This document shows, piece by piece, positions 41,467-42,540 of a stretch of DNA of 64,000 nt. Numbering within the stretch: position 1 is the first letter of the stretch; each line of letters begins with the position of its first letter. A program made the translations under genes and the position numbers. The notes below the pieces were generated by a model. That model was not told the DNA's origin and did no database searches. It saw only the letters and a program-made list of their open reading frames with translations. Source of the DNA: Isoetes taiwanensis (lineage: Eukaryota; Streptophyta; Lycopodiopsida; Isoetales; Isoetaceae); contig JAJEKV010000025.1 of NCBI GenBank assembly GCA_021234155.1, positions 9,061,642-9,125,641 on the forward strand. The letters run 5' to 3'.

Positions 41467-42540
41467 TCAAGGATATTCCTTGCGGATGCGACGCGCCAAG
41501 TGTACATCCTTGGGCATTAGAGTCACCCTCTTCGCGTGGATCGCGCAGAGGTTGCCTTCCTCAAACAACTGGGTGAGCTCGGCCTCAGCGGCTACTTGCA
41601 GCACCCGAGTTGTGAGCGACGTCACCCTGTAGTCGGTGACGAACTCCGCCATCACCTCCCGCATGAGTCGCTCAAAAGGTGCCTTCCTAATCAGGAGATT
41701 AGTGCACTGTTGAAAGTGTCTAATCTCCCGGAAGACACGGGAGTGTACCGAGTTAGGCCCATGGTGGACCTTGCTTCCCATTTCTGCCGTGGGCGGCGGC
41801 TTGGGCAGTTCTTGGGCGGCGGCCTCCCTCCACCCGGCCGGGATGTTTTGGCGGCAGGTACCAATCGTTATACCTGGCCCAAGCGAAGGTATTCTTGGTA
41901 TGCCTGTAGCGGCGCCCGGTAGGCGGTCCTCCTTCAAAGGCGAGAGCCCTTCGCCCGCCATATACGCTTCTTTGCCACCTTAGGTGGCCAGGCCCTCACA
42001 GGTAAGGTGGTCTTGGGTCCGCCCTTGCCCCTGCTCATCTTCTTCCTCCTCCTCTCCTTCCACACCCCCGCTCCTCCCCTCGGCGCCCGGGGGCTCCTCC
42101 TCCACGGCGGATTCCGGCCCGAGGGACGACGTTTCTTCTTTCGTCCTCCGGCTCTTCCGCGCGGCTCCTCCTCAGCTCCCCTCTTCCTCCTTGCGGCCCT
42201 CTCTTGAGCCACTCATGACCTCTCCTTACCTTTCTTCTTTGGGGCGAAGGCCAAAGCCGATCCCTGTTCTTGGACACGCTCTTCCCTCTGCTCTTCCCGC
42301 CCGGTTAATGCGTGGCCCCGAAGTGGCGAGATCGTTAGTTCTTTGTGTTCCCGCCCGGCCCGGGGCTGCTCTCGGCATCATTGATACGACCCGGCTGGCT
42401 GCTGCTGGTAGGGGGCTCCTCCTCCCCTTCTTGGGCGTAGGTGCTCGCGGTATCTTCTTCACATGCCCCCCCCTGCGCTGCGCCATGGAGAGGGTAGGCC
42501 TAGGGCCAGTCTTCCTATAGGTTTGTTTGGTTCGAGCCAT
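41467..42540 (-). CDS. Retrotransposon-encoded histone H3-like protein with long basic linker
   Basis: The ATG at 42540 opens MARTKQTYRKTGPRPT. This matches the canonical H3 tail at residues 1-6, Arg8 and Lys9, with Ala7 changed to Tyr and Ser10 to Thr. The last about 90 codons (41467-41736) are an H3 histone fold: 'FREIRHFQQCTNLLIRKAPF' (alpha-N/alpha-1), 'AEAELTQLFEEGNL' (alpha-2) and 'LCAIHAKRVTLMPKDVHLAR' (loop 2/alpha-3). Cys110, His113 and Asp123 equivalents of the H3-H3 interface are kept. Loop 1 has the length of ordinary H3, not the longer one of CENH3, though 'RHFQ..TNLLI' recalls CENH3. Tail and fold are in the same frame, but the Arg/Lys/Pro-rich middle (about 41960-42225) is in other frames as written. 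Full length would be about 358 codons against 135 in H3. It lies between primer site and gag on the element's coding strand, so it is element cargo. An intact or decayed gene cannot be told apart until the sequence is verified. Confidence 0.85.

What the first reader, a model, noticed from the sequence alone, without database searches (positions are those of the whole stretch)
41467..42540. Chromovirus carrying its own histone H3-like gene with an ARTKQT tail
Inside an otherwise standard Ty3/gypsy element, between primer site and gag and on the coding strand, lies a frame that starts MARTKQTYRKTG and ends in an H3 histone fold (NLLIRKAPFERLMREV ... NLCAIHAKRVTLMPKD). Tail and fold flank a basic Arg/Lys/Pro linker of more than 200 residues that no H3 has. 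The fold is far from any standard H3, yet keeps the invariant core and the canonical loop 1 length, which argues for long evolution under constraint rather than a recent chance capture. Inference: the product could enter element chromatin, or compete for readers and writers of H3 lysine 4 or 9.
Basis: partly seen in the sequence, partly recalled or inferred. Interest (0 to 1): 0.93.

Follow-up and report, generated by a model that had tools for sequence, protein, structure and literature searches.

The report
Histone H3-like gene inside jumping gene
A recently inserted plant-type retrotransposon carries, ahead of its own genes, a strongly changed copy of a histone H3 gene whose core is still intact but whose reading frame is interrupted between tail and core as sequenced; whether the element uses it is not known.

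Summary
The histone is real. On the minus strand a 170-codon open frame (41467-41979) ends in an H3 fold that aligns without gaps to solved H3 (E 1.6e-29) and passes Pfam Histone (2.9e-28). In the same register, 804 nt before the fold, stands MARTKQTYRK (42540). But three in-frame stops separate them: the "200-residue linker" is no open frame. The host is a complete LTR element, 33396-44749: paired LTRs, AATAC target duplications, primer site, polypurine tract, gag-protease-RT frame. The H3 sequence lies between primer site and gag, in sense. The LTRs are identical far from CpG (0 of 248 columns over 40 nt away differ) and very discordant near CpG, with indels and excess transversions: probably a young insertion with doubtful sequence in CpG-dense stretches, perhaps the linker too. 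Neutral drift poorly explains the fold (residues 108-130: 20 of 23 kept, P 0.0013, region chosen after the fact). No near relative was found in what could be searched. Best reading: a captured H3-type gene, long constrained, now carried by the element; this copy's frame is broken or mis-sequenced. Use by the element is possible, unshown.

The parts
33396..44749 (-). Complete Ty3/gypsy LTR retrotransposon (11,354 bp), 5' end at the right
   Evidence: LTR pair, TSD AATAC on both sides, PBS-like and PPT-like sequences; RVT_1, gag, protease domains
43124..44749 (-). 5' LTR (element orientation), TGTGACG...CGTCACA
   Evidence: blastn 89.2% to the other LTR; ends read
33396..35028 (-). 3' LTR (element orientation)
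43112..43122 (-). Primer binding site TGGTATCGAGC, close to the plant initiator-Met primer site (recalled)
   Evidence: sequence; the tRNA match is recalled, not tested
35029..35041 (-). Polypurine tract AAGGGGGGGAGAA next to the 3' LTR
42541..43123 (-). 583-nt leader between LTR and the H3 start codon, with 9 upstream ATGs of short frames
42229..42540 (-). H3-like N-terminal tail frame MARTKQTYRKTG... (104 codons, then TAA)
41980..42228 (-). Linker part with three in-frame stops (42226-42228, 42172-42174, 41980-41982); the first lies within an AG|GTAAG donor-like string
41467..41979 (-). 170-codon open frame whose last 89 codons (from 41736 down) are an H3 fold
   Evidence: PDB E 1.6e-29; Pfam Histone 2.9e-28; Foldseek best hit rice nucleosome H3
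40400..40918 (-). 172-codon open frame between H3 and gag, no Pfam or NCBIfam match
37766..40291 (-). gag - protease - reverse transcriptase frame (841 codons)
35887..37800 (-). RNase H, integrase and chromodomain-like remains, in several frames

Best explanation
A Ty3/gypsy element took up a host H3-type histone gene in sense orientation between its primer site and gag (gene transduction), and carried it through at least one recent round of retrotransposition. The H3 core changed at about 39% of positions, apparently under selection to keep a working H3: most positions recalled as touching DNA or the second H3 are kept. If made, the product would act like an H3 variant: pair with H4, enter nucleosomes, and present an altered tail (R2, T3, K4, T6, R8, K9 kept; the rest replaced). 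Shown: fold, tail start, place, complete and probably young element. Inferred: capture by transduction, selection, nucleosome entry. In this copy, as sequenced, tail and fold cannot be made as one protein; either the copy is defective (moved in trans) or the CpG-dense linker is mis-sequenced. Where the selection acted (host before capture, or element after) is open.
For: H3 fold ungapped over 87 residues, Pfam Histone 99 bits against a cut-off of 26.4. MARTKQT unique in the window, 0 of 20,000 shuffles. Complete element with AATAC target duplications and paired LTR ends; the LTRs differ at 0 of 248 columns more than 40 nt from a CpG, so the insertion is probably young, and the H3 lies inside it. 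54 of 89 residues equal a plant-type H3; 22 of 26 contact positions kept against 15.5 in neutral simulation (P 0.0005); residues 108-130 20 of 23 kept against 13.7 (P 0.0013); only 13.8% of 10,000 simulations stay stop-free even with indels left out. Coding-like GC pattern in the fold (second codon position lowest in all 4 windows of 30 codons from 41820 down). Foldseek of the model: best chain is rice nucleosome H3, 60% identity.
Against: Three in-frame stops. No second copy of the H3 region or element in the window and none obtainable elsewhere, so capture into the family rather than presence in a single copy is unproven; a later insertion of the gene into this one copy cannot be excluded. 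No host parent gene found. Nine upstream ATGs in the leader would hamper translation. Model confidence is low (pLDDT 65.3, pTM 0.46; 58.5 and 0.29 for the 170-residue frame) and the best Foldseek match has query TM 0.54. The tree cannot place the sequence (end branch 1.95, long-branch warning). The tested positions and region were chosen after the alignment was seen; 13.8% stop-free is not rare by itself; the BLOSUM test was only P 0.044.
Confidence: 0.55

Rival explanations
1. Dead passenger: the element transduced a copy of an already divergent, fast-evolving host H3 variant (germ-line type or odd H3 paralogue). All selection acted in the host; in the element the piece is a pseudogene and does nothing.
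For: Three in-frame stops; several frame jumps in the part of pol after RT, so the copy looks defective; captured sequences in plant elements most commonly become pseudogenes or are lost (PMC13317346, passages); [quoted passage not shown]
Against: The fold is intact in a 170-codon frame in a probably young element. The linker's sequence quality is doubtful: LTR columns within 3 nt of CpG differ in 22.9%, and tail plus linker have 7.2 CpG per 100 nt. The same gene-capture review also cites sorghum, where up to 72.4% of sequences transduced into LTR elements were expressed.
Confidence: 0.3
2. CENH3 origin: the piece comes from a centromeric histone gene, which would explain fast change and a long tail.
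For: Some shared letters with recalled Arabidopsis CENH3 (EIRHFQ..TNLLI, RVTLM).
Against: Scores 165, 200 and 198 against three recalled plant CENH3 folds, all needing gaps in or near loop 1, against 263 ungapped for H3.2; loop 1 has H3 length; the tail begins like H3; the tree puts the recalled CENH3s elsewhere, though it is not reliable for so long a branch.
Confidence: 0.08
3. Later insertion: an H3 retrogene or gene fragment landed in this one copy after the element had inserted.
For: No other copy could be examined (genome search did not complete).
Against: Sense orientation; no poly(A) stretch is apparent after the H3 stop (by eye, sequence); the divergence would have to be older than this probably young insertion. 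None of these excludes it.
Confidence: 0.07

Closest known systems
Histone H3 (H3.1/H3.2/H3.3)
   Same: Fold of the same length, ungapped; 53 of 87 residues of H3.2; 22 of 26 named contact positions; tail start MARTKQT
   Different: About 39% of the fold replaced, among them K56Q, K79V, F84V, Q85T; tail after K9 not recognisably H3; tail and fold far apart and separated by stops
Maize Bs1 and other LTR retrotransposons with transduced host genes (PMC13317346 passages; PMC7264820)
   Same: Host gene sequence inside an LTR element; transduced genes are usually in sense with gag and pol
   Different: Bs1 carries ATPase, xylan endohydrolase and glucanase pieces; here a histone, 5' of gag
Orchid Ty3/gypsy elements with an AlkB-type RNA demethylase (PMC9289625; abstract, section 12 and passages)
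   Same: Ty3/gypsy element with an extra ORF of host origin
   Different: Enzyme against RNA marks, in 38 and 23 consensus sequences of two species, tested in vitro; here a chromatin protein in one copy, untested
Plant CENH3
   Same: Fast-changing H3 relative; a few shared residues
   Different: Loop 1 of plain H3 length here; clearly lower scores (CENH3 sequences recalled)

Membership tests
Histone H3 | Histone fold with H3-type sequence | tested here: met
   PDB phmmer 105 bits, E 1.6e-29; Pfam PF00125 99 bits
Histone H3 | Tail ARTKQTxRK at the N-terminus | tested here: met
   but on the far side of three stops
Histone H3 | Tail and fold in one open frame | tested here: not met
   Stops at 42226-8, 42172-4, 41980-2; sequence quality in doubt
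Histone H3 | Incorporation into nucleosomes with H4 | not testable with these tools
   22 of 26 recalled contact residues kept is indirect
CENH3 | Longer loop 1 and sequence nearest to CENH3 | tested here: not met
   Ungapped with H3, gaps with all 3 recalled CENH3 folds, lower scores
Ty3/gypsy LTR retrotransposon | LTRs, TSD, PBS, PPT, gag, PR, RT, RNase H, INT | tested here: met
   integrase 32.5 bits against a cut-off of 32.6; PBS-tRNA match recalled
Chromovirus | Chromodomain after integrase | tested here: inconclusive
   VKWKHLPVEDA seen by eye in a second frame; no Pfam match for either piece
Retrotransposon family with a fixed additional ORF | ORF in most copies, dN/dS below 1 | not tested
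   No other copy available; the genome search unanswered in 10 tries

The most novel reading that the evidence does not exclude
A retrotransposon family that encodes its own H3 variant and uses it: the 5'-proximal product is laid down on element DNA or in particular cells, keeping K4 and K9 for host readers but with no recognisable K27 and without K56 and K79, so that the element escapes or steers silencing; or it competes for the K9 marks that chromodomains, possibly its own, bind.
Probability: 0.17. Interest if true: 0.92.

Novelty: new variant of a known kind. Interest (0 to 1): 0.6.

Why it matters
LTR elements with host-derived ORFs are known, but in 9 answered searches of the held paper library that had a histone or CENH3 term (listings, at most 20 papers each) I saw no title or abstract opening that describes one with a histone; that is the reach of those searches and no more. 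A mobile element that carries a core histone would make 'can a transposon bring its own nucleosome part?' directly testable, in a class of elements some of which read histone marks with chromodomains.

Tried and rejected
Simple intron between tail and fold: the first stop lies in AG|GTAAG, the only donor-like string of the four kinds scanned in the 1,074 nt. Worked out by hand from that listing, none of the three YAG|G sites between donor and fold (42033, 41906, 41876) has the donor's codon phase, and they lack a pyrimidine tract in GC-rich DNA. So no plain splice of those kinds as written; other splice sites were not scanned, and a wrong sequence would change the answer.

Old decaying element: disfavoured, because the LTRs are identical far from CpG. 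Natural LTR divergence at methylated CpG: disfavoured, as 43 transitions against 50 transversions plus 87 gap columns is not deamination. Against the error reading: systematic errors should hit both LTRs alike, the fold itself is CpG-dense (7.0 per 100 nt) and yet unbroken, and one identical LTR run of 216 columns holds 8 CpG. So the error reading is likely but not proven.

Protein searches: fold frame, 1021 hits among 1201 candidates, best 120 listed, all marked with the histone domain PF00125; read-through frame, 2577 hits among the 7963 candidates that were scored, best 120 listed, all marked PF00125. The tail and linker were then compared with the 241 proteins returned in all: linker best E 0.97, tail best E 0.003 with composition correction off, from the H3 start onward, so no relative of the linker among them. 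gag-protease region: 1 hit, Humulus, 24% identity, among the 7985 candidates scored. Viral contigs: 15 pattern matches, 0 relatives. ARAGORN (bacterial code) and Rfam: none. NCBIfam: only a sub-threshold archaeal histone match for the fold (17 bits, cut-off 50). Tree: not usable for placing the sequence.

Full report
What is there. On the minus strand, 42540 to 41467, the register that starts ATGGCTCGAACC reads MARTKQTYRKTGPRPTLSMAQRRGG... and, 268 codons further on (from 41736), VFREIRHFQQCTNLLIRKAPFERLMREVMAEFVTDYRVTSLTTRVLQVAAEAELTQLFEEGNLCAIHAKRVTLMPKDVHLARRIRKEYP-stop. The end piece is an H3 fold: 87 residues align without a gap to solved H3 chains (E 1.6e-29), Pfam Histone scores 99 bits with a cut-off of 26.4, and the predicted model, though of modest confidence (pLDDT 65.3, pTM 0.46), finds nucleosomal H3 chains first, led by rice (E 3.5e-6, 60% identity, query TM 0.54). 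MARTKQT occurs once in the six frames of the 64 kb, and never in 20,000 shuffles of the local 1.2 kb.

What is not there. The register is cut by TAA (42226-42228), TGA (42172-42174) and TAA (41980-41982). The open stretches in tail and linker are what random sequence of that composition gives (longest 104 codons, simulated mean 112, P 0.54); even the 170-codon fold frame is not remarkable for its length alone (P 0.077). GC by codon position looks coding in the fold and irregular in the linker.

The element. Two LTRs, 33396-35028 and 43124-44749, begin TGTGACG and end CGTCACA, and are flanked on the outside by AATAC on both sides; inside lie a TGGTATCGAGC primer site and an AAGGGGGGGAGAA polypurine tract. 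The likeness of the primer site to the initiator tRNA-Met site is recalled. In element orientation the order is LTR, primer site, 583-nt leader with 9 upstream ATGs, H3 tail, linker, H3 fold, a 172-codon frame without a family match, gag-protease-RT in one 841-codon frame, then RNase H, integrase and a chromodomain-like stretch in changing frames, polypurine tract, LTR. The chromodomain is by eye only; Pfam found nothing in the two pieces.

Age and sequence quality. The LTRs are 89.2% identical overall, but the differences crowd around CpG: 130 of 567 columns within 3 nt, 30 of 398 at 4-7 nt, 16 of 197 at 8-12, 2 of 131 at 13-20, 2 of 132 at 21-40, and 0 of 248 farther away. They comprise 93 mismatches (43 transitions, 50 transversions, 23 of them C/G) and 87 gap columns. 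Real ageing would not spare CpG-poor DNA, and deamination would give transitions. I read this as a young insertion with faulty base calls in CpG-dense DNA; the copies of a 4-kb tandem array in the same window show a weaker trend the same way. Tail and linker have 7.2 CpG per 100 nt, the gag-RT frame 2.5. Against applying this simply to the linker: the fold has 7.0 and is unbroken, a 216-column LTR run with 8 CpG is identical, and systematic errors should strike both LTRs alike. So whether the three stops are real cannot be told here.

Constraint. Against a plant-type H3 taken from a database protein (P0061), 54 of 89 fold residues are kept. In 10,000 neutral simulations to the same number of replacements, 13.8% stay free of stops (about 65 mutations, indels not modelled); 22 of 26 contact positions are kept against 15.5 on average (P 0.0005); of residues 108-130, 20 of 23 against 13.7 (P 0.0013). 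The 26 positions were named from memory of the nucleosome structure, and both sets were chosen after the alignment was in view, so these P values flatter the case. An earlier run of 20,000 from H3.2 gave 14.5% stop-free, P 0.0051 for the last 27 residues and 0.044 for the BLOSUM score of replacements. The true ancestor is unknown. The changes include K56Q, K79V, F84V and Q85T; R49, R52, R63, K64, R69, R72, R83, H113, K115, R116, T118, K122, D123 and R129 stay.

Relatives. For the fold frame 1021 of 1201 candidates passed (best 120 listed); the best is 64% identical over 52% of the query and is an H3. A read-through query of the whole register gave 2577 hits among the 7963 candidates scored (best 120 listed), all of those listed bearing the histone domain. 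Against the 241 proteins returned in all, the linker has no relative (best E 0.97) and the tail only weak matches that begin at the H3 start (best E 0.003, composition correction off). The gag-protease part had one hit, 24% identical, among the 7985 candidates scored, so the host lineage or this element is poorly represented and missing relatives mean little. Three recalled plant CENH3 folds score 165, 200 and 198 with gaps, H3.2 263 without; the piece is H3-type rather than CENH3-type. The tree leaves the row on an end branch of 1.95 with a long-branch warning.

How it may work. Most likely a host H3-type gene was transduced into the leader of the element and travelled with it. If translated, the fold should pair with H4 and enter nucleosomes, and the tail would offer K4 and K9 to host enzymes. 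This copy, as written, cannot make tail and fold together, and nine upstream ATGs stand before the start. Use by the element is therefore a possibility to test, not a finding.

Literature. A screen of 121 angiosperm genomes for extra domains (PMC9289625: abstract, section 12, passages) reports 15 extra domains that passed its filter; those named in section 12 include no histone, but the figure and supplement were not seen. The review of added ORFs (PMC7264820: first third and passages) and the gene-capture review (PMC13317346: passages) have 0 occurrences of the word histone; nor do PMC5408684, PMC1142308 and PMC6431247 have any; of these three I saw passages only. Ten paper searches were answered, seen as listings.

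Verdict. Observation partly confirmed, interpretation partly supported; new variant of a known kind; interest 0.6, rising sharply if other copies keep the fold.

Noticed in passing
33396-35028 and 43124-44749: LTR copies disagree almost only near CpG, with indels and many C/G swaps: looks like base-calling error rather than ageing.
   Followed up: partly
12554-23435: About 2.7 head-to-tail copies of a roughly 4-kb unit, 94-97% identical; content not examined.
   Followed up: partly
40400-40918 (-): 172-codon open frame between the H3 sequence and gag, no Pfam or NCBIfam match.
   Followed up: partly
46675-47262 and 58731-59322: A 78.5% identical direct repeat pair about 12 kb apart, perhaps LTRs of an older element; six long frames between 53 and 58 kb had no Pfam match.
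   Followed up: partly
48867-49544 (-): zf-RVT domain, probably remains of a plant-type LINE.
   Followed up: no
45155-45842: Short tandem array of 82-150 nt repeats just outside the element.
   Followed up: no
41984-42520 (+): 178-codon open frame antisense to the tail and linker, in GC-rich DNA; shows how easily long frames arise there.
   Followed up: no
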